From a virus, in the IMG/VR virus record IMGVR_UViG_3300009703_000046, positions 1 to 37,869 of that record: a stretch of 37,869 nucleotides of DNA, one strand, 5' to 3'. Shown here piece after piece: positions 130 through 37,502 of the stretch. The translations under genes and the position numbers were made by a program. Every line of letters begins with the position of its first letter. Within the stretch, counting starts at the first letter, position 1. Under the pieces are notes generated by a model. The model was not told the DNA's origin, searched no databases, and saw only the letters and a program-made list of their open reading frames with translations.

Positions 130-402
130 ATGAAACTAACCAAATCAAAACTAAAACAAATCATCAGAGAAGAAATACAACTATTGAATGAAGCTGATTG
201 GACAGTAATAAAAACTGGTGAAAAAACATTAAACAAGAAGGTTTGGGCTCAGGTAAAAAAGATGTTTCCAAACATGAAACCAAAAAAACAGCATGTTCCT
301 GGTGTAGGGTATGTTTATTATTTCAAAAATGCTAAAGGTGATAATATAGGAATGGTAAGTATTCAAAAACCAGGCGGTGTTGAAATTAGAATAAGGAAAT
401 GA
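130..402 (+). CDS. small protein with conserved MKLTK leader (copy 1)
   Basis: A 90-residue protein. Residues 1-17 are the leader shared with the genes at 900, 1169 and 1448 (M-K-L-T-K-S-K-L-K-Q-I-I-R-E-E), followed by L19-N20-E21-A22. I12-R13-E14 and L19-N20-E21 both fit the (I/L)-x-E rule for cleavage by T4-type prohead protease gp21. The body (from residue 23) is short, basic and unlike the bodies of its neighbours, with a beta-rich look (GVGYVYYF, GGVEIRIRK). From T4 internal proteins, whose short N-terminal propeptides target them to the capsid and end in I-x-E, I infer a head-packaged protein. No enzyme motif is visible, so its function after packaging is unknown. It is the first of five tandem genes. 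Confidence 0.75.
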   Translation: MKLTKSKLKQIIREEIQLLNEADWTVIKTGEKTLNKKVWAQVKKMFPNMKPKKQHVPGVGYVYYFKNAKGDNIGMVSIQKPGGVEIRIRK

Positions 403-406
403 GACA

Positions 407-871
407 ATGAAAAAAGTAACAATCAAAGAAGTGCGAAGGTGGATGAAAACATTAGAAGAAAACCGATACAGAAAAATCGTAAATGCAGATGCAAGACGGA
501 TTGCTTGGTTTGTTAATAATTCAATGTCAGAAAATTATGATGATATGCCTGAATCAATGAGAAAGAAATGGGTTAAAGCGGAATATAAAAAAGAACGATA
601 TATGGCAAAAAAATTCTTGGAATCAAAAAAACAGAATGAAAGTGTTGAAAACAAAGTAAGACAAATCATCAGAGAAGAATTAAACGAAGCATCCGTTGAC
701 CCAGAAGATGCCGTTAGATTATTAGATAATGCATTAGAAGATTTGGCATATGTTGTGGAAAAAATGAAACCACAAAAGGCAGAGAAATATGCTGAAAAAC
801 ATCATAAAAGTATTCCAGGATTGTTAGATTCGCTGGAACGAATAACCAATTTTATAGATAAACTAAAATAA
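407..871 (+). CDS. two-part protein with internal leader motif
   Basis: A 154-residue protein in two parts. Residues 1-78 are a charged, mostly helical region (basic and aromatic: VRRWMKTLEENRYRK, MRKKWVKAEYKKERYMAKKFL). At about residues 81-95 comes the leader motif of the neighbouring genes (VRQIIREELNEA), here internal, followed by an acidic helical tail of about 60 residues. The DNA of the motif matches the leader of its neighbours, so the gene looks like a fusion of an upstream domain to a leader-type gene. L-N-E/A is a candidate prohead-protease site that would separate the halves. The start at 407 follows the previous stop by 4 bases. An in-frame ATG at 601 lacks an obvious ribosome binding site. 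Function unknown. Confidence 0.7.
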   Translation: MKKVTIKEVRRWMKTLEENRYRKIVNADARRIAWFVNNSMSENYDDMPESMRKKWVKAEYKKERYMAKKFLESKKQNESVENKVRQIIREELNEASVDPEDAVRLLDNALEDLAYVVEKMKPQKAEKYAEKHHKSIPGLLDSLERITNFIDKLK

Positions 872-899
872 AAAAACAACAACTTAGGAGGTTGAGAAA

Positions 900-1169
900 A
901 TGAAACTAACAAAAACACGATTAAAACAAATCATCAGAGAAGAACTGTTAAAGGAAGAATCAGATGTTCAAGTATCAGTTATCAATACAGACCACGGTAA
1001 ATTGAGTAATACAGTTGATGGAGATAAAGGTGTATTGAAATTAGATAATAAAGTTATAGCCACTTACGAAGTTGGAGGTGGTGGAGTGACTAAAGGTAAA
1101 GTTAAAGATTTCAATCGGTTGATTGATGCTATTGGCAGCATCATTTGGGAAAAAGGACGACAATCATAA
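900..1169 (+). CDS. small protein with conserved MKLTK leader (copy 2)
   Basis: An 89-residue protein preceded by a near-perfect ribosome binding site (taggaggt at about 884-892). Residues 1-16 are the shared leader, followed by L-L-K-E-E. I12-R13-E14 and L17-K18-E19 fit the (I/L)-x-E rule for T4-type prohead cleavage. The body has a glycine stretch (VGGGGVTKGK) and a short hydrophobic C-terminal helix (RLIDAIGSIIW), with no recognised domain. Its TAA stop (1167-1169) overlaps the ATG of the next gene by one base, so the two are probably translationally coupled. A head-packaged protein is inferred, as for its neighbours. Confidence 0.75.
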   Translation: MKLTKTRLKQIIREELLKEESDVQVSVINTDHGKLSNTVDGDKGVLKLDNKVIATYEVGGGGVTKGKVKDFNRLIDAIGSIIWEKGRQS

Positions 1170-1444
1170 TGAAACTAACTAAATCAAAACTTAAACAAAT
1201 CATCAGAGAAGAAATTCAAAATTCTAAATTAACATCTATTTTAGATAAATTATCAAATGATAGCGTGAAAAAAGAAATGATAAAAAAATATAAGAATCAA
1301 TCTGCATTTAAAACATATTTATTAGCAAAGAATGAAAAAGACCAAAAAAAGTGGTGGAGTGCTCTTCTTATAAGTAGGTCTGATAGCGAAGTCAATAGAT
1401 TTTTAGCAGACATAAATAAATTAAGTAAACGGTACGGGGGTTAG
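1169..1444 (+). CDS. small protein with conserved MKLTK leader (copy 3)
   Basis: Encodes 91 residues from the ATG at 1169. A longer frame opens at 1145, but the leader begins at 1169, directly on the stop of the previous gene and with aaagga upstream, so I chose 1169. Residues 1-17 are the leader. Here only I12-R13-E14 fits a prohead cleavage site, since the L-N-E found in other copies is absent. The body is highly charged and helical, with KKWWSALLISR in the middle. No known domain. Its divergent body on a conserved leader is the rule for this cluster. Confidence 0.72.
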   Translation: MKLTKSKLKQIIREEIQNSKLTSILDKLSNDSVKKEMIKKYKNQSAFKTYLLAKNEKDQKKWWSALLISRSDSEVNRFLADINKLSKRYGG

Positions 1445-1447
1445 AAA

Positions 1448-1711
1448 TTGAAACTAACTAAAACAAGACTAAAACAAATCATAAGAGAAGAAATTCAAAA
1501 GTTGAATGAAGTAAAAAGGATTCAATTCATCATTCCTATGCGAGATAGAAAAAAAACAGCACAAATCTTAAAGAGAACAAGATTGAAAGTCGGAGAAGAC
1601 TATGATTTTGGTGTTGGTAAAGGTGCAACGTTTATATTAGATATAGATGTTCAGCATAGAAATAAATTTGTAGAATTGGCAATAGAAAATGATATTGCTG
1701 TTAGAAGTTAA
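1448..1711 (+). CDS. small protein with conserved MKLTK leader (copy 4, TTG start)
   Basis: An 87-residue protein starting at a TTG codon at 1448. The start is fixed by alignment of the leader with the three other copies. Residues 1-17 are the leader, followed by L19-N20-E21/V22, a candidate (L/I)-x-E processing site. The body (FIIPMRDRKKTAQILKRTRL ... ATFILDIDVQHRNKFVELAIENDI) alternates beta and alpha and looks like a small compact alpha/beta fold, but I cannot name it. It is the last of the leader cluster; about 60 bases follow before the repair-like cassette. Confidence 0.72.
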   Translation: MKLTKTRLKQIIREEIQKLNEVKRIQFIIPMRDRKKTAQILKRTRLKVGEDYDFGVGKGATFILDIDVQHRNKFVELAIENDIAVRS

Positions 1712-1772: not shown

Positions 1773-3473
1773 ATGTTAGATATATCAATAAAACAAATTC
1801 ATAAAGTTGTAACAACAACATCTAAGGCATCATCTTTTATTAAACAGTATATGGATATACAAGAAAAGATTGATGGGACTAAACTTACTTTAATTAGAAA
1901 TAAAAATCCATATAATAAAGATTATACAAAAAATTGGATAGTATCATATAAGAATAGTATCATATGGTCATCTGAATTTGCAGGTCTAAAGGATTTAAAA
2001 TCAGTTAAAACCAAATCAATTGGAACTAGCCAATATAAATTTGTACACGATCATTTAAAGAAAATCCACTCCAAAACAAAATCAATTCCAAAAGGTACTG
2101 AATTTTTTGTAGAATTTGTTCAAAATAAAAAAACCCTAACACGAGATTATAAACATAAACATGGATTATTTCTTGTTGGGTTTGGAAAAACAAATTTTGA
2201 TATCAATAAAGGTACTTTAAACTCAGTAGGTGCTAATTTAAATACTGATGAGAAATTGGTTAATAAATATGCAAAGATATTAAATTTTAATATATTCCCA
2301 ATTTTATTCAGAGGGACTTGGAAAGATGAAAATTCAATAAGAACCGGATTTAAGAATAATGAGTTATTAAGATTATTTAATAAGTATTCAAAATATATTG
2401 ATTTTGATGATCCATTATCCATTGTAAATGGGATGTCCAGGGTTTGTGTAGACTTTCAATCAGTACTTGGTGGGAAACCAGAGGGTGTTGTAATAAAAAC
2501 AAAAGATGGTAAAATATATAAAGTTGTTCAGAGCGATCAATATGATAAATCTACCAGAGGTTCCAAAAAAGCAAGATATGAATTATCAAGAGAAGAGGAA
2601 ACTCAATATTGGAAAGATATAAAAACATTTACAGATAAGATTGTTAAGAAATTAAAGTTAAATAAATCAATTCAAGATATATTAGGTGACTTTTCAAAAG
2701 TAGTTTATTCCCTGAAATCAGTGCCGGTGAAACATTCAAAAAAAGATTTAATAAACTTTCAAGATGATATATTTCTTACGGGCAAAATAGATATTAATAA
2801 AAAACTTGATTTAGCTAAGGTAAATTCCAAGTCGGTTGCATTATTTCCAATGGCCGGGAGACCAATTCACGCAGGGCATTGGGCGGTAATAGAAAAAATG
2901 GCAAAAGATAATGATTCTGTTATTGTTTTTGCATCAACAAAGGATAGGGTGAAAGGATCAGATTTTACTATAACTGGAGCTCAAATGCAAGATGTTTGGA
3001 TTGATATTCTAAAGAAATATTTACCAAAAAATGTAACATTAAAGTATTCAAACTTACCAGTTAATGATATTAGGCGAGAATTAAAGTATTATGATTCAAA
3101 TATATCAAAGAAGACCCCAACACTATCAGTATATTCAGATACGGAAGATATAAAGAAGTGGGAAGTTGATATTAAAAAATTAGCTCCAAATTTAGTAAAT
3201 AGAAAATTAGCTAAGACCGTTGGGATACCAAGAACATCTACAGTAAATATTAGTGGTACGGAAATGAGACAATTTTTATCAAAGAATGATAAGGAAAGTT
3301 TTATAAAATATTTACCCAAAATATCATCAGCTGATAAAGAAAACTATTGGTCAATATTAACCGATCAAGTTTCGATTACCGATTCAATATTAGCAGCGAC
3401 AACAGATTATATAAAAGAGGTTATATTTGAACAGAAAAATAGTACTGACATCAGATCATCACTTTCTTCATAG
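1773..3473 (+). CDS. ligase-like nucleotidyltransferase fused to NMN-adenylyltransferase-type domain
   Basis: A 566-residue, two-domain protein. The N-terminal half has the signature of covalent nucleotidyltransferases (RNA/DNA ligases, capping enzymes): motif I E31-K32-I-D34-G35 with the lysine that would carry AMP, a motif III-like GTEFFVEF at 108-115, IIIa-like HGLFLVGF at 130-137, motif IV EGVVIK at 237-242 and motif V lysine K250. The second half (about 350-540) has the HxGH nucleotidylyltransferase motif (RPIHAGH, 363-369) and the matching ISGTEMR motif (493-499), as in NMN adenylyltransferases (NadM-like). Inferred roles are nucleic-acid end joining and NAD synthesis or turnover. The fusion is unusual; order and spacing of motifs support both calls. 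The end overlaps the next gene by 47 bases. RNA versus DNA substrate cannot be told. Confidence 0.7.
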   Translation: MLDISIKQIHKVVTTTSKASSFIKQYMDIQEKIDGTKLTLIRNKNPYNKDYTKNWIVSYKNSIIWSSEFAGLKDLKSVKTKSIGTSQYKFVHDHLKKIHSKTKSIPKGTEFFVEFVQNKKTLTRDYKHKHGLFLVGFGKTNFDINKGTLNSVGANLNTDEKLVNKYAKILNFNIFPILFRGTWKDENSIRTGFKNNELLRLFNKYSKYIDFDDPLSIVNGMSRVCVDFQSVLGGKPEGVVIKTKDGKIYKVVQSDQYDKSTRGSKKARYELSREEETQYWKDIKTFTDKIVKKLKLNKSIQDILGDFSKVVYSLKSVPVKHSKKDLINFQDDIFLTGKIDINKKLDLAKVNSKSVALFPMAGRPIHAGHWAVIEKMAKDNDSVIVFASTKDRVKGSDFTITGAQMQDVWIDILKKYLPKNVTLKYSNLPVNDIRRELKYYDSNISKKTPTLSVYSDTEDIKKWEVDIKKLAPNLVNRKLAKTVGIPRTSTVNISGTEMRQFLSKNDKESFIKYLPKISSADKENYWSILTDQVSITDSILAATTDYIKEVIFEQKNSTDIRSSLSS

Positions 3474-3984
3474 AAATATAAGTAAGTATTGCAATCGACC
3501 ACATTTAGATGAATATGATATGGCCGATTTAATGATAGAGAGGTGGAATGAGGTAGTTGATAAAAATGATACTGTATTATATCTTGGAGATTTTTCTGCA
3601 GGGCTAAAGGGTAGAAAGGCTGAGTTAATTGAAATTGCAGATAAATTAAATGGGAAGAAACATTTAATTAAAGGAAATCACGATTATCTTGGAACGGATT
3701 TTTATCTAAATAAATTGGGATTTGAGTCAGTTGAACCGTTTTATATTTATAAAGATTATTTCTTTTGTCATTACCCATTAATTAAATATGAAAAATATCC
3801 AAATGTTGAGGTCAATTTATTAATTGACGTGTTTAATGGTGAAAAGTGTAAATATACATTTCACGGACACCAGCATTCAAATGAGCCACCTGAACATAAA
3901 GATCATTTTAATGTAGGCGTGGATAGAAATAATTTTAAGCCGGTTATATTTATAGATAAGATAAAAGAATTGGGATGGGGATAA
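3427..3984 (+). CDS. calcineurin-like metallophosphoesterase (TTG start)
   Basis: A 185-residue protein of the binuclear metallophosphoesterase superfamily. All signature blocks are present in order: SDHHFLH (9-15; D10, H12), GDFS (54-57), GNHD (83-86), a later FCHYPL histidine and FHGHQH near residue 142. It starts at TTG 3427, with aagagg 7 bases upstream, inside the end of the preceding gene, so the two are coupled. The family hydrolyses phosphomonoesters or phosphodiesters. Between a ligase-like gene and a kinase gene, an end-healing phosphatase (2',3'-cyclic or 3'-phosphate) is the natural guess, as in bacterial Pnkp, where kinase, metallophosphoesterase and ligase domains form one protein. 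The substrate is not shown by the sequence. Confidence 0.85.
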   Translation: MNRKIVLTSDHHFLHRNISKYCNRPHLDEYDMADLMIERWNEVVDKNDTVLYLGDFSAGLKGRKAELIEIADKLNGKKHLIKGNHDYLGTDFYLNKLGFESVEPFYIYKDYFFCHYPLIKYEKYPNVEVNLLIDVFNGEKCKYTFHGHQHSNEPPEHKDHFNVGVDRNNFKPVIFIDKIKELGWG

Positions 3985-3987
3985 TAA

Positions 3988-5697
3988 TTGGCAAAACCTA
4001 TAAAAATGGCAGATATAACAAAATTAGATAAACCAGTATTTGTTCTATTTATGGGTGGTGCTGGCTCAGGCAAATCATATGCGGCCAATAAATTTTTTAA
4101 AGGGAAATTGCCGATATTAGATATTGATATTATTATACAAAAAATAGGAAAAGGAAAATATGATAGAAAGAATTTAAGTAAAGGATTGCAAGTAACTAGA
4201 AAAGCAATAGATACTTGGATTAAAAAAGGTAAATCATTTATCCAGGCAAGTACTGGTGCTAATTTTAAAGGGACATATAATAAATTTAAATTGGCAAAAG
4301 AAAATGGCTTTAGCACAATAATGGTCTTAGTTAATGTTCCGATGAAACACGCAATTGCACAGGATTTAGAGAGAATGGCAAGAGGCGAGAAGGGTTTGGG
4401 CAAAGATCTGGAGTGGAAGGTGAAGAAAACTTATAAAGGTGCAATTGATACATTTAATAAATTAAAATCAGAAAGTGTAGTGGATTATATGATAAATTAT
4501 AAAGTGAATAAAAATATAAATGAAGAAAAGGAGTTATTGTTAATGGGTGGAAATACACGAGCCATTGATAGAGAAACCGGAGAAACAATTGCATTAGCGC
4601 AAAAGGTTGATTTACAGAAAGTAGATAGAGCTACATTTGTAAAGGAAATGAAGGTTGCATTTAAAAAATTAAATAGTTTATTTAAATCGAGATATAAAGA
4701 GCCAATTTGGCCAGATTTTAAAGTTATAACGAGTGGGCTGGCATTTAATGGATCATCTGAATTCTTATTTGATAAGGGAATTTCAGATAAAGAATTTGTA
4801 AAATATAAACCAAAAGTTGGTGATATTGACGTTACGATTCCACATGAACATTTAAAGCCTATATTTGATTTATTAGCATCACTGGAAAATAAAAAGATTA
4901 CAAATAAGTTAACTTATATTGGTCAAAATAAAAAGACTCAAGGTGGCCATCAAATTAATGCATTATTTAAATATAAAGATGGTGATGCCATTGCAATGGC
5001 ACAGGTTGATTTTGAGGGGGTTGAATATAAAAATAATGAACCCGATGAGTTTGCTAAATTTTCACATAATAGTAATTGGAATGATATAAAAAATAATTTC
5101 AAAGGGGTGGCTCATAAATTTTTATTAATAAATTTAGTTCGAGGTATTTCAATGAGAAAGGATATTGTTATACTTACGGCAAAATCACCAATCGATCCAA
5201 ATGATAAGAAATTTAGAGTTAAAAAAATAAGTGGCGTTCCAAGGGAAATGGCATTTTCAGTAGACAGGGGTTTGAGAACTAAACTATATCAGATATTTGA
5301 TGAAAATGGCGATGCGGTTAAAGTTGATAATAAATTTGTATTTAAAGAAAAGCCAACAGCCGATTCGGAATATAAAAGAGATTTGCCAATTATATTTACA
5401 ATGTTATTTAAGAAAAAACCATCAGGTTCAGACTTAACATCATTGAAATCTTTTCTTGGATTGATAACTCTTATGAAAACTCACTTAGATAGTAAATTAA
5501 TTAATAGGGTATTTGATCAATTGGTTACAATTAATCTATTCGGTCCTGCTGCACAAAAATTAGATAGAGACGCAGCGCGAGTTGATTATAAAGTTAAAAT
5601 TGCCATGGTTAATAGAATGTATAAAGAATTTTCATTCTTAAAGAAACATAAAACGAATGTTAAGAAATTGGCATTAAATTATTATAAAAATTATTAG
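3988..5697 (+). CDS. P-loop kinase fused to nucleotidyltransferase-fold domain (TTG start)
   Basis: A 569-residue protein beginning at TTG 3988, three bases after the phosphoesterase stop, with gggga upstream. Residues 15-175 look like a P-loop nucleotide/polynucleotide kinase: Walker A GGAGSGKS (23-30), DIDII (45-49), VLVNVP (113-118) and an arginine-rich lid (LERMARG, 127-133). After residue 210 comes a region with pol-beta-type nucleotidyltransferase features: SGLAFNGSSEFLFD (249-262), G278-D279-I-D281-V and a third acidic D341 (AQVDFEG). tRNA-type nucleotidyltransferases and related enzymes have this pattern. It would supply 5'-end phosphorylation and nucleotide addition next to the ligase and phosphatase genes. 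The kinase call is firm. The second domain is less certain and could be a catalytically divergent relative. Confidence 0.65.
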   Translation: MAKPIKMADITKLDKPVFVLFMGGAGSGKSYAANKFFKGKLPILDIDIIIQKIGKGKYDRKNLSKGLQVTRKAIDTWIKKGKSFIQASTGANFKGTYNKFKLAKENGFSTIMVLVNVPMKHAIAQDLERMARGEKGLGKDLEWKVKKTYKGAIDTFNKLKSESVVDYMINYKVNKNINEEKELLLMGGNTRAIDRETGETIALAQKVDLQKVDRATFVKEMKVAFKKLNSLFKSRYKEPIWPDFKVITSGLAFNGSSEFLFDKGISDKEFVKYKPKVGDIDVTIPHEHLKPIFDLLASLENKKITNKLTYIGQNKKTQGGHQINALFKYKDGDAIAMAQVDFEGVEYKNNEPDEFAKFSHNSNWNDIKNNFKGVAHKFLLINLVRGISMRKDIVILTAKSPIDPNDKKFRVKKISGVPREMAFSVDRGLRTKLYQIFDENGDAVKVDNKFVFKEKPTADSEYKRDLPIIFTMLFKKKPSGSDLTSLKSFLGLITLMKTHLDSKLINRVFDQLVTINLFGPAAQKLDRDAARVDYKVKIAMVNRMYKEFSFLKKHKTNVKKLALNYYKNY

Positions 5698-8790: not shown

Positions 8791-8812
8791 ATACACCAAT
8801 ATGAGGTATAAA

Positions 8813-10582
8813 ATGAATAGTTGTAAAATATGCACCAAAGATACTAAATGTAAGATTTATTGTTCAAATAAATGTAAATTTTCTGATAATGAGTATAATA
8901 AAAATAGATGTAAAAAAACTAAAAAAAACATTAAAACGAAATTATTAGAATGCAATAAATGTAAATGGGTATCAAAAGATATACACAATCTATCGGGGTC
9001 AATTAAAAAACATTGCAAGAAGTGTTACGATATAGATAATATAGATTTTAATCTATTTACAACAATAAATGCACCAATTAAAGAAAGATTTAAATGTCCG
9101 TTATGTAAATGGGATACTGTAGATTTAAATAATAAATCTGGCCAATTTACAGTGCATATAAAACGAAAACATAATTTATCTATAGATGAATTTTGTAAAC
9201 AATTCCCAGAATTAAAGAAATTATGGTCACAATATTTTAAAAATAAAGATTATGTTAAATTTATTAATTCAGATTTAAATAATCAAATTCAATGCAAAAT
9301 ATGTAATAAAAATTTTAAAAAAATATCAAATACTCATTTACGTACACACAACACAACTCCAACTGAATATAAAGAAAAGTATGGTATAATATCTACAGTA
9401 TCAAATACCACATCAGAAAAGCAATCATATTATTCAAAACAACACAATGCTAAGATGAAGGAATTTTATACTGAAAATGATCTACCAATGCCATGGCACA
9501 CTGAAGATGTATATTTAAAGAAAGTTAAAAACAATTTTAAATATTATAGTACTAAATATAATGATAAATTTATATTACATTTTGACTTTCAGCAATATTG
9601 GAGAGGTAATAGTTTTGATGTAACTTGTAAGAATTGTACAAATAGATTTACTAGTCATAGTAGAGATTTGCGATGTTATTCATGTAATCCAAAAATTAAA
9701 GGTTTTAGTAAGGAAGAAAAAGAGCTGAAATCGTATTTAGTTGATGAGTTAAAATTAAATGTAATTGAAAATGATAGAAAGATATTGCATCGAAAAGAAA
9801 TCGATTTTCTAATTCCAGAATTTAATATTGGGATTGAATATAATGGGTTATATTGGCATTCTGAATTAGAGGGTAAGACTAAAAATTATCATCTTGATAA
9901 AACAGTTCTTGCAAATAAGAATGGCATATCTTTAATACATATTTTTTCAGATGAATGGTTAAATAAAGGGGATATAGTAAAAGGTAGATTGCAAAATATT
10001 TTTAATAAAATTAATACTAAAATTTATGCAAGAAAATGTAATATTGTTGAGATTAAACCTAAAATAAAAGATGTATTTTTAAATAAATATCATATACAGG
10101 GGAAAGATAGATCATCAGTTAAATTGGGAGCATATTATAATGATGAATTGGTTGCAGTAATGACATTTGGTAATACTCGACGAGCATTGGGATCTAAAAA
10201 TAATATTGTAGGTGAATATGAATTGATTCGATTTTGTACTAATTATAACTATTCTGTCGCAGGTATAGCGAGTAAATTATTAAAACATTTTATAAGAAAA
10301 TATAATCCAAAATCGATAATTTCTTATGCTGATAGGCGTTGGACGTTAAATTCTATGGATAATTTATATACAAAAATTGGATTTAATTTAACATCAATAT
10401 CATCACCGGGGTATTGGTATTTAGATGATTATTTATATAGATTACATAGATTTAATTTTAGAAAAAATGTTTTAGTAGAAAATGGATCAGATCCAAATAA
10501 AACTGAGTGGGAAATTATGCAAGAAGAGGGGTATACTAGAGTATGGGATTGTGGTCAATTTAAATATGAATTAATAATATAA
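8813..10582 (+). CDS. free-standing homing endonuclease, zinc-finger and VSR-like nuclease type
   Basis: 589 residues from the ATG at 8813, chosen over 8801 because tgagg lies 8 bases upstream. The N-terminal half is a string of CxxC-type zinc fingers (CKICTKDTKCKIYCSNKC, CNKCKWV, CPLCKWD), including two Ros/MucR-like units with HNLSIDEFCKQFP and HNTTPTEYKEKYG. The middle has a VSR/PD-(D/E)XK-like nuclease core (EIDFLIPEFNIGIEYNGLYW, then HIFSDEW). The last 180 residues form another domain often found with such phage endonucleases (KCNIVEIKP ... YADRRWT). It lies between capsid and neck genes with its own terminator-bounded slot, as mobile endonuclease genes do. It shares finger and nuclease types with the endonuclease at 35483. 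The gene is richer in A+T and lysine than the flanking structural genes. Confidence 0.75.
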   Translation: MNSCKICTKDTKCKIYCSNKCKFSDNEYNKNRCKKTKKNIKTKLLECNKCKWVSKDIHNLSGSIKKHCKKCYDIDNIDFNLFTTINAPIKERFKCPLCKWDTVDLNNKSGQFTVHIKRKHNLSIDEFCKQFPELKKLWSQYFKNKDYVKFINSDLNNQIQCKICNKNFKKISNTHLRTHNTTPTEYKEKYGIISTVSNTTSEKQSYYSKQHNAKMKEFYTENDLPMPWHTEDVYLKKVKNNFKYYSTKYNDKFILHFDFQQYWRGNSFDVTCKNCTNRFTSHSRDLRCYSCNPKIKGFSKEEKELKSYLVDELKLNVIENDRKILHRKEIDFLIPEFNIGIEYNGLYWHSELEGKTKNYHLDKTVLANKNGISLIHIFSDEWLNKGDIVKGRLQNIFNKINTKIYARKCNIVEIKPKIKDVFLNKYHIQGKDRSSVKLGAYYNDELVAVMTFGNTRRALGSKNNIVGEYELIRFCTNYNYSVAGIASKLLKHFIRKYNPKSIISYADRRWTLNSMDNLYTKIGFNLTSISSPGYWYLDDYLYRLHRFNFRKNVLVENGSDPNKTEWEIMQEEGYTRVWDCGQFKYELII

Positions 10583-16791: not shown

Positions 16792-17799
16792 ATGAAACTA
16801 ACTAACTTTAAATTAAGAAAAGCCATTCGCGAGATAATAACTGAATTGGATTTTAAAGATCAAGATGCATTTAAAAAATATAAATCTAAACATAATATGA
16901 GAAGTTCTACAAAGATTACTATTGCGGGCAACGAAACGACTGTTGGTACTGCCACTGGTAAGGGTAAGTCTGATGATATATCGGGAAATCAAACATCTAA
17001 ATCTGAACAAAAGAATAAATTAGTTAAGTTAGCATCAAATGCGAATACTATAGGTATTGAGGGGATGACGGCCGTAGCATCAATAACGGGCGATCCCAAC
17101 TATTCAGATATATCTAAGGCATCAAATATGTATGATTCCAATAAAGAGTTGATAAACCCAACATGGAAATATAAGCATGCATTAAATATGGCAACCGCAA
17201 ATAATCCTAAACAAAAAAAACAGCTTAAAGCATTGGATCGTGAACTATTTAACTCATATTCTTTGCATGATGTTGAGGTGAAAATTGCAGCACGAAAATT
17301 GAAGGGTGAACTGTCTTCAAAATTAAATGCGAAAGGGTTAAATGCTAGTGCGAAATCAAAATTAACTGCACAATATGATAAGCGAATATTAGATTCGAAA
17401 AATAAAATAACCAAAAAACATATAAAACAAATAACACCTAAACTGAAAAATGTCATGTCAGTTTTAAATAAAATTGCAGATCATCATAATATACCCCCTG
17501 ATGCAGATTTTATTCGTAATGAAGTCAAACCTGCGTATATTGCACAAATGCAAAATAAATCAAATCCCAAATCAACGGCAAAATCAATGGCATCTGCTGT
17601 GAAGAATATAGTTTCTAGTTATAAAAAAAGTGAGAAAAGGGGCAACGAAAAGCGCGGGATGGATAATGTCTATGATGATATACATGATTATATGAGAGAT
17701 GACTTGGGGATGCACCCTGGCGATAAAAAATGGGATGGTGTGATGAATAAGTTAACTACTAAAATAATGCGCCAACTTTCGACTAAAAAAACTAAATAA
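16792..17799 (+). CDS. basic protein with MKLTN leader, possible packaged protein
   Basis: A 335-residue, lysine-rich, probably DNA-binding or packaged protein. Its N-terminus MKLTNFKLRKAIREIITEL is a diverged form of the leader of the genes at 130-1711, with I12-R13-E14 and I16-T17-E18 as possible (I/L)-x-E prohead cleavage sites. After about residue 100 it is helical with many Lys (RILDSKNKITKKHIKQ), ending DKKWDGVMNKLTTKIMRQL. No enzyme motif is seen. The gene takes the place that portal gene 20 has in T4 after the tube gene, but it does not resemble a portal protein. Excellent ribosome binding site (gaggag). A terminator follows. Confidence 0.65.
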   Translation: MKLTNFKLRKAIREIITELDFKDQDAFKKYKSKHNMRSSTKITIAGNETTVGTATGKGKSDDISGNQTSKSEQKNKLVKLASNANTIGIEGMTAVASITGDPNYSDISKASNMYDSNKELINPTWKYKHALNMATANNPKQKKQLKALDRELFNSYSLHDVEVKIAARKLKGELSSKLNAKGLNASAKSKLTAQYDKRILDSKNKITKKHIKQITPKLKNVMSVLNKIADHHNIPPDADFIRNEVKPAYIAQMQNKSNPKSTAKSMASAVKNIVSSYKKSEKRGNEKRGMDNVYDDIHDYMRDDLGMHPGDKKWDGVMNKLTTKIMRQLSTKKTK

Positions 17800-27434: not shown

Positions 27435-28667
27435 ATGTATTATATCGTTATTCCAATATTTTCTGATCCAATATTGCACCCACTGCACGTGGATAATTTT
27501 TTATCATTATTATATGTTAAAGAAATTGGTGAAAATTCAAAAATGCTTACATTCAATCACACAGATTTATTATCTGAAGATTCATTTGATTTTTTAAAAG
27601 ATAAGATTATACTTACTCCAAATAAAAAGGAATTATTAACATTATATCCTTTCAAAGAAATATATGATATTAATTTATTAAATTTTTGGATTAATAATAA
27701 ACCATTAGCTTTGGATGATATTAAGTGTGATGTAATTGATATATTTCATAATCGATATTATAATTTAAAGAATATAAATGTACTAATTCCAATATATAAA
27801 CATCTTGAATATTGTGATAAAGTTTCTAAATTATTGGAAGATGTTTGGGGTAAAAAAGATTCAATTGAGTTTGATAGATATGATATATATAATAATGATT
27901 CAATATTAGCATTATATTCAATTGAACGAAATGGGATTGAAATGTCAGATGATGTATTAGATATTTTTGATGCGAGGGTGGAGAAGCATATATCAAATAA
28001 TAAACTATATTCTGATTACTTTTTATATACAAGCACGGGCCGACCATCAAATGCATTTGGCTCAATTAATTTTGCAGCATTAACGAAAGATCAGCAAAAG
28101 GCAATTATACCAGAAAATGATTATCTTATTGAATATGATTATGATGCATATCATCTAAGATTAATTGCAGATTTTATAGGATATACTTTTCCAGAAGGTT
28201 CGGTGCATGAGTATTTAGCAAGTTTTTATGGTGTAAATTATAAGGAATCAAAAGCGATTAGTTTTAGGCTCCTATATGGCGGTATAAATAATGATATAGC
28301 GAAATCAATACCATTCTTTGGAAAAGTGCAACAATTTATATATCAACTATGGGATACTTTTAATAAACAAAAATATATAAAAACGCATATTTATAATAGA
28401 AGACTATCATTAGATAACTATACTGATATGAATATGAATAAATTATTTAATTATTTATTACAAGCACATGAAACTGAATGTAACATAAAAACGATAATTG
28501 AACTTCAGAAATATTTATTTGGTAAGAAATCAAAATTAATATTATATAGATATGATAGTTTTCTATTTGATATTTCAAAACAAGATGGGGATAATATGTT
28601 ACAAAAAGTAAAACAAATTTTAGAAAGAAATGGACATCCAGTTAAATCGAGTGGGGGTATTATATGA
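27435..28667 (+). CDS. miniature, divergent family-A DNA polymerase
   Basis: A 410-residue protein with family-A polymerase motifs in correct order. Present are: a Pol I-like LYSIERNGIEMSDDVLD (161-176), TSTGRPS (199-205, Pol I TATGRLS), motif A D235-Y-D-A-Y-H240-L-R, motif B K273-AISFRLLY281-G, YIKTHIYNRRLSL (314-326), a LLQAHETE glutamine region (341-348), and motif C YRY-D374-S. Both metal-binding aspartates are kept, but the steric-gate Glu of motif A is His240 and the motif C His-Asp-Glu is Tyr-Asp-Ser. The distance from IERNG to TGR is about 35 residues, against over 100 in Pol I, so the thumb is nearly absent. No 3'-5' exonuclease motifs are recognised in the first 150 residues. No clear ribosome binding site. 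It could be active on special substrates, or a relic. Confidence 0.7.
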   Translation: MYYIVIPIFSDPILHPLHVDNFLSLLYVKEIGENSKMLTFNHTDLLSEDSFDFLKDKIILTPNKKELLTLYPFKEIYDINLLNFWINNKPLALDDIKCDVIDIFHNRYYNLKNINVLIPIYKHLEYCDKVSKLLEDVWGKKDSIEFDRYDIYNNDSILALYSIERNGIEMSDDVLDIFDARVEKHISNNKLYSDYFLYTSTGRPSNAFGSINFAALTKDQQKAIIPENDYLIEYDYDAYHLRLIADFIGYTFPEGSVHEYLASFYGVNYKESKAISFRLLYGGINNDIAKSIPFFGKVQQFIYQLWDTFNKQKYIKTHIYNRRLSLDNYTDMNMNKLFNYLLQAHETECNIKTIIELQKYLFGKKSKLILYRYDSFLFDISKQDGDNMLQKVKQILERNGHPVKSSGGII

Positions 28668-33602: not shown

Positions 33603-34659
33603 TAAATTTGATCCAAAATATATATCGTTTTTAGATCAACTTGAAGATAGTGAGGGTGCACATAAAACTCACTTGAATGATAAGGTGTTAATTGTTGATG
33701 GATTGAACACCTTCATTAGAGCATTTGCGGTCAACCCAGCAATAAATGATGATGGTCTTCATATTGGTGGGTTAATTGGATTCTTAAAATCATTAAGATA
33801 TTCAATTGATATAATTAAACCCACAAGATGTATAATTGTATTTGATGGTAAGGGTGGATCAGTAAAACGACGAAAACTTTATCCTGAATATAAAAATAAT
33901 CGAAAAGTAAAATCAAAATTAAATAGAAATGTAGATTGGGGAACCGCACCGACAACTGAAGATGAATCGATGAAACTTCAAATTGGTCGATTAATTGAGT
34001 ATTTAGAGCAATTACCTGTTACCTTAATTTCAGTTGATAATATTGAAGCTGACGACGCAATGGCATATATTTCAAAACAATTATTGGTTGATAGTAAAAT
34101 GGTATTAATGTCAACGGATAAAGATTTCTTACAGTTAGTGGATGATAGAATAAATGTATGGAGCCCCACAAAGAAAATATTATATACACCAGAAAAAGTT
34201 AAAAAAGAGTTTGGAATACCGTCACATAACCTACTAATTTATAGGGTATTAGATGGTGATAAATCAGATAATATAAATGGTATAAAGGGTGCGGGATTAA
34301 AATCAATAATTAAATATATAAATCCAATTGCAGAGGATGATATTTTTTCTGCAAAGGATTTAATTGATTATGTAGAATCACCCCCAAATAAATCAAAACT
34401 TTTAGAAAATATAAAAAATAATCTTAGTATTGTTAAGAGAAATTATTTATTAATGCAATTAAGTGATGTGGATATAAGTAAACATATTAAACGAAAATTG
34501 CAAGAATCTGTTAATAGGGAAATACCGCAATTGATTAAACATAAATTACAAGTTATGTTCTTACATGATAAATTATCATCTCAAATTCCAAATTTTAGTA
34601 ATTGGATGGTGGAGTTTATCCGTTTAAGTAGATTTAAGGGACTATCGCGTGACAAATAA
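33592..34659 (+). CDS. rnh: 5'-3' exonuclease / RNase H, FEN family
   Basis: About 355 residues from the ATG at 33592 (gagg 6 bases upstream); a TTG-TTG extension to 33586 is possible but less likely. Metal-site motifs of the FEN family are in order: VLIVDGLNTFIRAF, VFDGKGGSVKRRKLYPEYK with the basic cluster, DNIEADDAMAYIS, STDKDFLQLV, and the helix-hairpin-helix DGDKSDNINGIKGAG. T4 Rnh (305 residues) removes RNA primers and flaps. The gene overlaps UvsX upstream and the helicase downstream (start at 34649), forming one translated unit. Confidence 0.9.
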   Translation: MSFDKFDPKYISFLDQLEDSEGAHKTHLNDKVLIVDGLNTFIRAFAVNPAINDDGLHIGGLIGFLKSLRYSIDIIKPTRCIIVFDGKGGSVKRRKLYPEYKNNRKVKSKLNRNVDWGTAPTTEDESMKLQIGRLIEYLEQLPVTLISVDNIEADDAMAYISKQLLVDSKMVLMSTDKDFLQLVDDRINVWSPTKKILYTPEKVKKEFGIPSHNLLIYRVLDGDKSDNINGIKGAGLKSIIKYINPIAEDDIFSAKDLIDYVESPPNKSKLLENIKNNLSIVKRNYLLMQLSDVDISKHIKRKLQESVNREIPQLIKHKLQVMFLHDKLSSQIPNFSNWMVEFIRLSRFKGLSRDK

Positions 34660-35434
34660 ATTATTGGATTTTGGACATTCATTTCAGATAAAGATTATCG
34701 CAAGTTTAATGATAAATTCTCAATTTCTATCTCAAATTTATGATATATTAGATGAGAAACATTTTGATAGTGATTCTTTAAGGTGGATTGTTGAGAGGTG
34801 TAAAAAATATTTTATAGATTATAAGAAACCAATTACTTTAGATGCATTTAAAGTTGAAGTTGGTGATATTGATAATGATGTATTAAAAACTACAGTTCTT
34901 GAACATTTAAAGGAAATTTTTAGATTTCTAACTGCACCTGATTTAGAATTCATTCAAGATAAAGCATTAGATTTTTTTAAGAATCAAGCTTTAAAAGGTG
35001 CAATATTACAATCAGTTGATATTTTGGAGCGTAGTAGTGATTTTGATCAAATAAAGACACTAATAGATGATGCTATGAAAGCTGGTACGGAGAGGGATGT
35101 TGGTCATGAATATATTAATGATATTGAAGATAGATATTCTGAAACCGCGAGATCGACGGTTGAGACTGGGTGGCCGGTGATAGATGAATTAATGCAAGGT
35201 GGTTTGGGTCATGGTGAATTAGGGGTTGTTGTAGCTCCTGCCGGTATTGGTAAATGCATTGGTGGTGATACTAAAATAGAAATTCAATACGAAGATATAG
35301 GATTTAATATTACAGATGAATTGACATTATGGTTTAAGCCTTGGGATATGATTTATGTAAATGATAATCTACAGTTAACAGCCTCTGATGTTAGTATTTT
35401 ATTATCACGAGTGGGTATTGGAAAAACATCATAA
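34649..35434 (+). CDS. 41: gp41 replicative helicase, N-terminal part plus N-intein (fractured gene)
   Basis: A 261-residue product starting at GTG 34649 (aaggga upstream). Residues 1-202 are the N-terminal half of a DnaB/gp41-type helicase, ending in the Walker A motif APAGIGK (196-202). Residue 203 is Cys, followed by IGGDTKIEIQYEDIGF: an intein N-terminus (block A: C1, then G-D-T-x-I). After 59 intein residues the frame stops. The Walker A motif is completed at 36753 by the other half (GIGK + SWT). The helicase would be restored only by trans-splicing. The N-intein is short and contains block A only, with no block B. It ends in the odd sequence RVGIGKTS, which resembles the extein P-loop. 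Confidence 0.88.
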   Translation: MTNKLLDFGHSFQIKIIASLMINSQFLSQIYDILDEKHFDSDSLRWIVERCKKYFIDYKKPITLDAFKVEVGDIDNDVLKTTVLEHLKEIFRFLTAPDLEFIQDKALDFFKNQALKGAILQSVDILERSSDFDQIKTLIDDAMKAGTERDVGHEYINDIEDRYSETARSTVETGWPVIDELMQGGLGHGELGVVVAPAGIGKCIGGDTKIEIQYEDIGFNITDELTLWFKPWDMIYVNDNLQLTASDVSILLSRVGIGKTS

Positions 35435-35450
35435 GTTTTTCATTTTTTAT

Positions 35451-35468
35451 GATATTTATATATAGAAA
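35451..35468 (+). promoter_or_regulatory. putative phage promoter element inside fractured helicase gene
   Basis: Reads gatatttatatatagaaa between the N-intein stop and the endonuclease ORF; ribosome binding site tgggag follows. The endonuclease gene may therefore be transcribed separately from the helicase halves. Confidence 0.45.
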
Positions 35469-35482
35469 ATGGGAGATTTAAT

Positions 35483-36349
35483 ATGAAACTTTTGAAATGT
35501 AAAATGTGTGGTTATGAAGCAAAACAATTACATCAGCATATAAAATATAAACACGATTTAAGTAGTGATGAATATAAGAAAAAATATGATGTTGATAAAT
35601 TACAGATAGTAACGGAAGAACAATGTAAGATGAGAAGTGAAATAGCATTGAATGGTGGGTCAAATAGACGAGTAGAATATTGGATAAATAGAGGATATTC
35701 ATTAGAAGATGCTAAAATTCAAGTAAGTAAGATACAGTCTAATAATGGGAAGCATAGAAATGGTGGAGAATCATCAACTGCATTTCAATATAAATGGTGG
35801 ATGAGAAAACATAATTTGACAGAAGAAGAAGCTATACAGAAAGTATATGAAATACAATCAAAGAATAGTAGTAAATCTAAAAAGTTTTCTGGAAAGAAGC
35901 ATTCTGACACATCAAGGCGACAGATTTCAATATCTATGAGCAATCATATTTCAAATGTTGGAAAAAAAGAATGGATTGAACATTTCGGTGATTTTTCTAT
36001 GTACTACAGAAGTAAACCAGAAATTGAATTATTTAACTATATTAGAGATAATATAAATGAAAATGTAGAATGTAACGTTTTTGTTGGTAGTAGAAATGTT
36101 GATATTTTATGTGGTAATAAAATAATTGAATTTTTTGGTGATTATTGGCATTGTAACCCAAATAAGTATAAAAAAGATTATTTCCATTCGCGGATAAAGT
36201 TATTAGCTGAAGAAATTTGGGATAATGATAATGATAAAATAAATTATCTAAAATCTAAAAACTATGATGTATTAGTTATATGGGAAAATGAATGGAGTAA
36301 AAATAGAGACGTTGAAATATCTAAAATAAAAAGGTTTTTGAATGATTAG
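35483..36349 (+). CDS. homing endonuclease between split-intein halves, VSR-like
   Basis: A 288-residue protein. It starts with a Ros/MucR-like zinc finger (CKMCGYEAKQLHQHIKYKHD, LSSDEYKKKYD), then a basic linker with repeated helices. The C-terminal third is a VSR-like nuclease: YRSKPEIELFNYI, then RNVDILCGNKIIEFFGDYWH, CNPNKY, EEIWDNDNDKINYLKSKNYD, VLVIWENEW. This is the endonuclease family described for fractured genes in marine metagenomes, in which a split intein is separated by a free-standing endonuclease gene. It should cut intein-free gp41 alleles and so spread the whole arrangement. Its stop overlaps the C-intein ATG by 8 bases, so C-half translation is coupled to it. Confidence 0.85.
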   Translation: MKLLKCKMCGYEAKQLHQHIKYKHDLSSDEYKKKYDVDKLQIVTEEQCKMRSEIALNGGSNRRVEYWINRGYSLEDAKIQVSKIQSNNGKHRNGGESSTAFQYKWWMRKHNLTEEEAIQKVYEIQSKNSSKSKKFSGKKHSDTSRRQISISMSNHISNVGKKEWIEHFGDFSMYYRSKPEIELFNYIRDNINENVECNVFVGSRNVDILCGNKIIEFFGDYWHCNPNKYKKDYFHSRIKLLAEEIWDNDNDKINYLKSKNYDVLVIWENEWSKNRDVEISKIKRFLND

Positions 36350-37502
36350 TGTAACAAAAAGAGAAGTTACAGAAACGGTAAATATAAAGGGTTTATTTAA
36401 ACAAATGAATATTCCAGATGTAGCTGAAACTGAATATAATGTAAAGTTTGATTTGAAAGTTAAAACACCATACGGTTATCATAAAGTACCAACTTTAATC
36501 AGAACGGAGTTGCAGAAAAGTATTCGTGTTTATTTTAACAATAATAAAACACTGGAATGTAGCTGGAAACATAAATTGAAAGCTAATGGTGAATGGAAAA
36601 TGGTAAGGGATATAAAAAATGGCGAAGTAATTGAAACTAAAACTGGCATAACTACTATTAAAAAAATACGAGAAGGTAAAGATAAAATATTATATGATTT
36701 ATCAGTTGATAAAGTTCATTGTTTTTATTCTAATAGTATTTTATCGCATAATAGTTGGACTGTTGCGGCTATTGGGTGTAATGCATTACAAGCTGGTAAT
36801 TCTATAGTTCATTATACTTTAGAGTTAAATGAGGCATATGTTGGGTTGCGATATGATTCAATATTAACTGGAATTTCCAATCAAAATTTAAAATATCATA
36901 AAGAAGATGTTATTGATAAGGTGAATAATATAGATGGTGATTTAATCATCAAATATTTTCCAACGAAGACTGCATCAGTAAATACATTATCTGCACACTT
37001 GCAGAGGTTAACTACATTAGGTACAAAAGTTGATATGGTGGTAGTTGATTATGCAGATATAATGAAAGATGTTGGTCTTGCAAAAGAAGTAAGGCATGCA
37101 CTTGGAAATATTTATGAAGATCTAAGAGGGCTTGCTGGGGAATTTCAAATACCAATTTGGACTTGCAGTCAAGCGAATAGGAGTGCACTTGATGAGGATG
37201 TGATTGAAGCACAAAAGATTTCAGAATCATATCAAAAGATTATGACTGCGGATTTCGTTATGTCGCTTTCGCGTAAAGTTGAAGATAAAGTTGCTAATAC
37301 AGGTAGATTTCATGTTATCAAAAATAGATTTGGTCCTGATGGTATTACATACCCAGCAATGGTAAATACCAACACCGGTAGGATTGAAATACATGAAACG
37401 AATACGGTAGTAGGAAAGCAGACGCAAAATAAAATTGACAATCGAGATAATATGGCAAGAAAATTATTATCTAATAAATTTAATGATTTAATGGGGGATT
37501 AA
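36342..37502 (+). CDS. 41: C-intein plus C-terminal part of gp41 replicative helicase (fractured gene)
   Basis: A 386-residue product. Residues 1-137 are an intein C-part: VKTPYGYHKVP, block B (S74-x-x-H77, CSWKHKLK), VRDIKNGEVI, block F (ILYDLSVDKVHCFYSN) and block G (ILSHN137), followed by Ser138 as +1 residue. Residues 138-386 are the helicase C-half: SWTVAAIGCNALQAGNSIVH completes the P-loop, Walker B is DMVVVDYADIM, then CSQANRSAL, and KNRFGPDGI near the end. With the N-half the spliced protein would have 451 residues, like T4 gp41 (475). All splicing residues (C203, H77, H136-N137, S138) are present, so trans-splicing is likely. Carrying block B on the C-part is atypical. Confidence 0.88.
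   Translation: MISVTKREVTETVNIKGLFKQMNIPDVAETEYNVKFDLKVKTPYGYHKVPTLIRTELQKSIRVYFNNNKTLECSWKHKLKANGEWKMVRDIKNGEVIETKTGITTIKKIREGKDKILYDLSVDKVHCFYSNSILSHNSWTVAAIGCNALQAGNSIVHYTLELNEAYVGLRYDSILTGISNQNLKYHKEDVIDKVNNIDGDLIIKYFPTKTASVNTLSAHLQRLTTLGTKVDMVVVDYADIMKDVGLAKEVRHALGNIYEDLRGLAGEFQIPIWTCSQANRSALDEDVIEAQKISESYQKIMTADFVMSLSRKVEDKVANTGRFHVIKNRFGPDGITYPAMVNTNTGRIEIHETNTVVGKQTQNKIDNRDNMARKLLSNKFNDLMGD

What the first reader, a model, noticed from the sequence alone, without database searches (positions are those of the whole stretch)
34649..37502. Fractured gp41 helicase with a split intein in the Walker A motif and an endonuclease gene between
N-half ends APAGIGK-C, C-half resumes HN-SWTVAAIG; block A, B, F and G residues are all present. 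A zinc-finger/VSR-like endonuclease gene lies between them, overlapping the C-half start. The type was described from marine metagenomes, where split inteins in gp41 were found and later proved very fast. A helicase that works only after trans-splicing makes phage replication depend on the mobile element.
Basis: partly seen in the sequence, partly recalled or inferred. Interest (0 to 1): 0.85.

Follow-up and report, generated by a model that had tools for sequence, protein, structure and literature searches.

The report
Split helicase joined by two-piece intein
In this virus of bacteria the gene for the DNA-unwinding helicase is cut in two by a mobile element: each half carries part of a self-splicing protein (an intein) predicted to join the halves, with a DNA-cutting 'homing' gene between them, and relatives show the element empty, split, decaying and re-fused.

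Summary
The gp41/DnaB-like helicase is broken at Walker A (GIGK|S). The N-half carries a 59-aa intein piece and the C-half a 137-aa piece. A 288-aa zinc-finger/VSR-fold endonuclease gene lies between them and overlaps the C-half start by 8 nt. In 79 related phage contigs the helicase is uninterrupted at exactly this codon boundary. I found 24 further filled loci, all at the same site: 21 split and 3 unsplit. Intein and helicase trees conflict, so the element moves horizontally.
This is not the fast gp41-1 type. It is atypically split near its N-terminus, nearest VidaL in fold, with a conserved N-piece extension that known short N-pieces lack.
Two results are new to me. (1) The family runs from intact endonuclease through decayed or lost endonuclease to single-ORF inteins, and the unsplit forms lie apart on the tree, so split and unsplit forms interconvert. 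(2) Upstream of the endonuclease lies a DNA copy of the Walker A target core (11 of 22 split loci; 3 of 152 control regions). Here a promoter-like box also sits in the loop of a hairpin that hides the ribosome site, as in I-TevI control. Splicing, cutting and regulation are predictions.

The parts
34649..35254 (+). N-extein: helicase residues 1-202, ends ...VVAPAGIGK (first part of Walker A)
   Evidence: ORF; PHROG 19 E 1e-25; contiguous with the C-extein in 79 relatives
35255..35434 (+). N-intein, 59 aa and stop: Cys1 + Hint start CIGGDTKIEIQYEDIGF, then conserved extension with W-x-K-P-W-D
   Evidence: aligned with relatives; unsplit L125, L141 and L152 carry the same extension inside one ORF
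35414..35428 (+). target-site-like element GGTATTGGAAAAACA: copy of the Walker A DNA (GIGKT) upstream of the endonuclease gene
   Evidence: 11 of 22 split loci vs 3 of 152 control regions; PWM P=0.013 here; only perfect match in window
35432..35480 (+). predicted RNA hairpin, 20-bp stem (arms 35432-35451 and 35461-35480); right arm holds the endonuclease Shine-Dalgarno GGGAG 35471-35475
   Evidence: z about -4, 0 of 200 shuffles as stable; equivalent hairpin in L082
35453..35460 (+). promoter-like box TATTTATA in the hairpin loop
   Evidence: 9 intergenic copies on + strand of window vs 0.8 expected, mostly 28-46 nt before gene starts
35483..36349 (+). homing endonuclease: N-terminal Ros-type zinc finger, helical linker repeats, C-terminal VSR/EDxHD nuclease (invariant E180, D207, G219, W222, H223, W267, E268; D220 and D249 nearly invariant)
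36342..36752 (+). C-intein, 137 aa: rest of the Hint fold, block B (S-W-K-H77), block F, block G SHN
36753..37502 (+). C-extein: Ser+1 and rest of the helicase ATPase domain (249 aa); second known intein site SQANR|S is empty

Best explanation
A mobile split-intein cassette of 1,498 bp sits in the Walker A motif of a T4-like phage replicative helicase. The two precursor proteins are made separately, their intein pieces associate into one Hint fold, and class-1 trans-splicing (Cys1, Ser+1) rebuilds the intact P-loop. The free-standing VSR-fold endonuclease between the halves cuts intein-free helicase genes at the same P-loop and the whole cassette is copied in (homing). The insertion site, halves, catalytic residues, empty sites, horizontal movement and nuclease fold are shown by computation. 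Splicing, cutting and homing are inferred. I also infer, with less certainty, that the endonuclease is held off early and made late: a hairpin in read-through transcripts hides its ribosome site, a promoter-like box in the loop would give hairpin-free transcripts, and a target-site-like element upstream would let the enzyme repress itself. The C-half has its own AAGG ribosome site inside the endonuclease 3' end.
For: Exact empty sites in 79 relatives. 25 distinct filled loci including this one, all at the same GK|S/T. Catalytic residues conserved; C-piece H77, H136, N137 invariant. Unsplit homologue L125 models as one Hint fold, pLDDT 95.7, best PDB match VidaL (E 1.3e-7, then gp41-1). Intein tree puts the window with L124/L119/L127/L148; the helicase tree rejects W+L124+L119+L127 as a clade (p-AU 1.7e-4). 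Nuclease: VSR E 3e-5 by profile, I-Bth0305I top fold match. Regulation; I-TevI precedent in PMC2988022.
Against: No splicing or cleavage data. The strong ribosome-site hairpin is clear only in the window and L082; most other loci lack it. The target-like copy is absent from clade L130/L133/L138/L139/L142/L145, and no strict copy was found in L119, L153 or L157, so it is not essential to the family. Target-like similarity covers mainly 12-13 nt. TATTTATA as a promoter is an inference from position only.
Confidence: 0.88

Rival explanations
1. The halves no longer splice: the helicase is a broken gene and the phage uses another helicase.
For: The window is a 37.9-kb fragment, so another helicase cannot be excluded.
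Against: Splicing residues conserved here and in the filled relatives; no frame damage; the two exteins stay close to intact relatives (C-extein 68-80% identity) down to the exact junction; relatives with a decayed endonuclease keep both halves open.
Confidence: 0.05
2. The target-like copy and nearby elements upstream of the endonuclease are not regulatory but a relic: the endonuclease gene was captured into an unsplit intein at a target-like sequence, or brought half of its old target along.
For: Only the left half of the target is copied and the invariant TGG on the right is missing; absent from one clade; collaborative-homing models predict capture of endonuclease genes by inteins or introns (PMC2988022).
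Against: Copy kept in divergent clades after it lost the N-intein reading frame or fell behind the stop (L128, L129, L151, L154, L156, L158, L159), usually 57-70 nt before the endonuclease start; a relic should fade. Unsplit L125, L141 and L152 show no such copy in their intein sequence.
Confidence: 0.4
3. The unsplit members are ancestral and the gene was fractured several times independently at the same point, rather than being re-fused after loss of the endonuclease.
For: The tree is unrooted; L152 and L125 branch near the base of the window's clade; keeping L141 outside the L133-L145 clade is not rejected (p-AU 0.22).
Against: Helicase tree pairs unsplit L141 with split L142, which holds an endonuclease remnant (100/100); intermediates exist: remnants (L119, L142, L153, L157) and an endonuclease-free split with an 11-nt gap (L145). 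Unsplit forms are not one clade (p-AU 1e-11).
Confidence: 0.3

Closest known systems
Fractured genes with split inteins and a VSR-like endonuclease family (Dassa et al. 2009, NAR; paper not held, known from citations and memory)
   Same: Host gene split by an intein, free-standing VSR-like endonuclease gene between the halves, phage replication genes including gp41
   Different: N-terminal split with a conserved N-piece extension; unsplit homologues at the same site; target-like element and hairpin upstream of the endonuclease; I could not check whether this insertion site is among those they list
gp41-1 / gp41-8 split inteins
   Same: Same host protein family; C-piece profile matches gp41-1 (6qaz, E 4e-10)
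   Different: Canonical split (N-piece about 90-100 aa with block B). gp41-8 sits at SQxNR|S (memory), the second site here, empty in the window and filled in relatives. The fast rate cannot be transferred
VidaL and PolB16 OarG (split after beta-2, 'S1')
   Same: Split between beta-2 and helix 1; long C-piece starting just before the helix; VidaL is the best fold match
   Different: Their N-pieces are 16 and 15 aa, and naturally atypical N-pieces are given as 15-37 aa (PMC13014065, PMC10189870); here 59 aa (33-74 in family) because of an inserted subdomain
AceL-TerL and GOS-TerL (split after helix 1, 'S2')
   Same: Short N-piece, long C-piece, phage genes
   Different: Here the split lies before helix 1; the S2-like arrangement is seen instead in L083, L085 and L086
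M. smegmatis DnaBi1 (P-loop intein, PMC6195587)
   Same: Replicative helicase, intein in the P-loop, P-loop Ser is the +1 nucleophile
   Different: Unsplit class 3 mini-intein in a bacterium
I-TevI, I-TevII, I-TevIII and MobE regulation in T4-like phages (PMC2988022)
   Same: Homing-site-like sequence upstream of the endonuclease ORF, promoter near or inside a hairpin that hides the ribosome site
   Different: Those are intron-encoded or free-standing GIY-YIG/HNH enzymes; here a VSR-type enzyme in a split intein; not tested experimentally
I-Bth0305I (EDxHD homing endonuclease, 3r3p)
   Same: Same nuclease fold (top match)
   Different: Intron-encoded; different DNA-binding parts

Membership tests
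Class 1 split intein | Cys1, block B (T/S)xxH, block F, HN at block G, nucleophile +1 | tested here: met
   Cys1 at 35255; S-W-K-H77, H136, N137, Ser+1; H77, H136, N137 invariant in 16
Class 1 split intein | halves on separate ORFs matching one intein | tested here: met
   unsplit L125, L141, L152 join both pieces; model of L125 pLDDT 95.7
Class 1 split intein | trans-splicing | not testable with these tools
   needs expression of both halves
Fractured gene with homing endonuclease | free-standing VSR-like endonuclease gene between the halves | tested here: met
Fractured gene with homing endonuclease | intein-free alleles with intact target | tested here: met
   79 contiguous empty sites
Fractured gene with homing endonuclease | horizontal movement | tested here: met
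   helicase tree rejects the intein clade, p-AU 1.7e-4
gp41-1/gp41-8 canonical split inteins | split at the endonuclease position (N-piece ~100 aa with block B) | tested here: not met
   block B is on the C-piece; N-piece 59 aa
VidaL-type (S1) atypical split | split between beta-2 and helix 1 | tested here: met
   alignment and model: beta-2 ends ~20, split ~50-56, helix 64-70 in L125; VidaL best fold match
VidaL-type (S1) atypical split | N-piece ends directly after beta-2 (short N-piece, 15-37 aa) | tested here: not met
   conserved extension; N-piece 59 aa, 33-74 aa in the family
EDxHD/VSR homing endonuclease | VSR-like fold with conserved E, D, H | tested here: met
   E180, D207, H223 invariant, D220 and D249 nearly so; I-Bth0305I top fold match
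EDxHD/VSR homing endonuclease | cleaves intein-free target | not testable with these tools
   enzyme assay needed
I-TevI-like control | homing-site-like operator upstream of the endonuclease ORF | tested here: inconclusive
   sequence element significant; binding unknown
I-TevI-like control | promoter placed so that late RNA escapes an RBS-hiding hairpin | tested here: inconclusive
   clear in window and L082, weak elsewhere; promoter inferred from motif position

The most novel reading that the evidence does not exclude
A split intein whose fracture is reversible: it is held open by an endonuclease that regulates itself through a copy of its own target (operator) plus an RNA hairpin with the promoter in its loop, and when the endonuclease is lost the two intein pieces re-fuse into a single-ORF intein, repeatedly in evolution.
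Probability: 0.4. Interest if true: 0.75.

Novelty: new variant of a known kind. Interest (0 to 1): 0.6.

Why it matters
How split inteins arise and whether they can go back is open. This family places empty, split with endonuclease, split without endonuclease and unsplit forms at one codon of one gene, so the steps can be ordered and rebuilt in the test tube. The N-piece extension is a new natural solution for an early split and a candidate tool for protein ligation. The target-like element and hairpin would extend T4 intron-endonuclease control to split inteins, and binding and translation assays can test it directly. Several relatives have the helicase in three pieces with two unrelated split inteins, a natural test of orthogonality.

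Tried and rejected
(1) The tail ...VGIGKTS at the end of the N-half first looked like a chance ending or a protein-level P-loop mimic. The protein-level idea was dropped because the copy is out of frame or behind the stop in 7 of 12 loci. (2) A search for an own-target match with a simple DNA score was weak per locus; the PWM and translated-pattern tests with controls gave the signal. The wider pattern was chosen after looking; one search repeats it with plain GxGK and GxGK[ST]. (3) An inverted target copy in L138, L139 and L142 was suspected by eye and not supported by a test. (4) A conserved RNA structure downstream of the copy: not consistent across loci. (5) N-intein alone finds nothing in the PDB. 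(6) No relative of the C-intein in the genome collection by pattern scan, and in annotated phages only one weak one (Rhodococcus phage NiceHouse DnaE, 31%). (7) The Dassa 2009 and VidaL papers are not in the library.
Full report
WHAT IS THERE. The window ends in a replication module of a T4-like phage: UvsX/RecA-like gene, 5'-3' exonuclease, helicase, and the start of a further gene that looks like a nucleotide reductase. The capsid protein is 52-55% identical to Flavobacterium phages 'immuto' and Microcystis phage Mel-JY01. The helicase is in two ORFs. The N-half (34649-35434) ends its helicase part at APAGIGK and goes on with 59 intein residues. The C-half (36342-37502) begins with 137 intein residues ending SHN and resumes at SWTVAAIG. 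A 288-aa endonuclease ORF (35483-36349) lies between and overlaps the C-half start by 8 nt (ATGATTAG).

THE SITE IS EXACT. Of 80 relatives found with the C-half, 79 have the two exteins joined with no residue missing, most as VAPAG[VIA]GK|[TS]W. These are the intein-free alleles, at 68-80% identity to this helicase in the C-extein. No second helicase is in the record, which is a fragment.

THE FAMILY. Scans with the endonuclease, the C-intein and its alignments gave 24 further distinct filled loci besides the window (L082, L119, L124-L130, L133, L138, L139, L141, L142, L145, L148, L151-L154, L156-L159; the rest are near copies), all in the same codon gap of this helicase. With an endonuclease ORF: window, L082, L124 (5' end damaged), L126-L130, L133, L138, L139, L148, L151, L154, L156, L158, L159. 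Remnant only: L119, L142, L153, L157. None, with 11 nt between the halves: L145. One unbroken ORF: L125, L141, L152. In the remnants it is the 3' end of the endonuclease gene that survives; this is where the ribosome site of the C-half lies (AAGG just upstream of 36342 in the window), so I infer selection for C-half translation.

ANATOMY OF THE INTEIN. Unsplit members show what the two pieces make: a Hint fold with a 30-45-residue subdomain between beta-2 and helix 1, and the fracture lies at the end of that subdomain. The model of the L125 intein has pLDDT 95.7 and matches VidaL best, then gp41-1. A 2026 paper gives natural early split sites directly after beta-2 (VidaL, PolB16) or after helix 1 (AceL, GOS TerL), with N-pieces of 15-37 aa (PMC13014065). 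Here N-pieces are 33-74 aa because of the conserved subdomain (W-x-x-P-[WF]-[DE] and, in most, a GWQ motif). In the window's clade GWQ is replaced by LTAS or a similar ITAS.

MOVEMENT. The intein tree joins the window with L124, L119, L127 and L148 (96/90; 99/98 in the smaller set). The helicase tree puts the window among intein-free phages, and the data reject grouping it with L124, L119 and L127 (p-AU 0.000165). The intein was therefore acquired horizontally. Unsplit forms do not form one clade (p-AU 1e-11); L141 pairs with split L142 in the helicase tree at 100/100. Repeated re-fusion after endonuclease loss fits best; repeated fracture is not excluded.

ENDONUCLEASE. Ros-type zinc finger, helical YW..GY repeats, and a C-terminal VSR-fold nuclease. 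Profile hits: VSR 1odg E 3e-5, Ros 2jsp E 0.011, I-Bth0305I 3r3p E 0.011. Fold search: I-Bth0305I first. E180, D207 and H223 are invariant in 11 family members. Similar enzymes sit in split inteins at the Walker A motif of other phage ATPases: L085 (helicase), L086 (SbcC/gp46-like), L083 (UvsW-like) (gene names by eye).

CONTROL REGION. The N-half ends in VGIGKTS, a copy of the Walker A just upstream of the endonuclease. In 22 split loci, GxGK in any frame occurs in this stretch in 11, against 0.5 expected from shuffles and 3 of 152 other gene-upstream regions in the same loci. GxGK[ST] occurs in 4, against 0.04 and 0 of 152. With a wider pattern it is 12 of 22, of which 7 are out of frame or behind the stop, mostly 57-70 nt before the endonuclease start. 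Similarity covers GGTnnnGGTAAA and stops before the TGG that is invariant in the real target. The loci are related, so the counts are not independent events, but several distant clades have it. In the window a 20-bp hairpin (z about -4) pairs 35432-35451 with 35461-35480, the latter holding the Shine-Dalgarno, and its loop is TATTTATA, a box found nine times in intergenic DNA of this window against 0.8 expected. L082, from another clade, has the same layout (z about -2.3); most others do not. The layout is that described for I-TevI: operator resembling the homing site (15/20 nt), late promoter, and an RBS-hiding hairpin formed only on read-through RNA (PMC2988022). I take this as a hypothesis at about even odds.

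TWO FRACTURES IN ONE GENE. In L119, L122, L124, L127, L128 and L133 the helicase is broken a second time at SQxNR|S by a canonical split intein of gp41-8 kind, so three polypeptides and two splicing events are needed. L148, L151, L157 and L158 show the second N-piece. L125 combines an unsplit intein at the first site with a split one at the second. In the window the second site is empty.

VERDICT. As a find it is a new variant of fractured genes with split inteins; the unsplit, apparently re-fused forms and the target-like control element are the parts a specialist would not expect.

Noticed in passing
L119, L122, L124, L127, L128, L133 (second site SQxNR|S); L148, L151, L157, L158: Helicase gene broken twice: an early-split intein at Walker A and a canonical gp41-8-like split intein downstream, so the helicase would be assembled from three proteins.
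   Followed up: partly
L119:199-1725: UvsX/RecA-like gene in the same phage carries an in-frame mini-intein (WCVDPLSTKIKI...RLHHNT), so neighbouring replication genes are invaded too.
   Followed up: no
L083, L085, L086 around 3000-5000: Split inteins with related VSR-like endonucleases at the Walker A motif of other phage ATPases (UvsW-like, gp41-like, SbcC/gp46-like), split after helix 1 as in AceL-TerL; the element class seems to favour P-loops.
   Followed up: partly
window 5967, 10611, 13932, 16237, 17849, 19339, 30349, 35453, 37610: TATTTATA box on the + strand in 9 intergenic gaps (0.8 expected), mostly 28-46 nt before gene starts: likely a promoter motif of this phage group.
   Followed up: partly
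window 8801-10582: A second large homing-endonuclease-like gene (PHROG 3339, Ros-type zinc finger) directly after the major capsid gene, with no split gene around it.
   Followed up: no
window 130-1711 and 16792-17799: Several otherwise different proteins share an N-terminus like MKLTK(S/T)xLKQIIREE(I/L); it resembles the capsid-targeting leaders of T4 internal proteins (from memory).
   Followed up: no
window 35413 / L123 end: The near-identical contig L123 breaks off exactly at the start of the target-like element, perhaps because populations differ downstream of it.
   Followed up: no
window 27435-28667: 410-aa family A DNA polymerase-like protein with a weak Pfam match (E 1e-5) to the polymerase domain only.
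   Followed up: no
L159 598-849: An extra 83-aa ORF lies between the N-half and the endonuclease gene.
   Followed up: no
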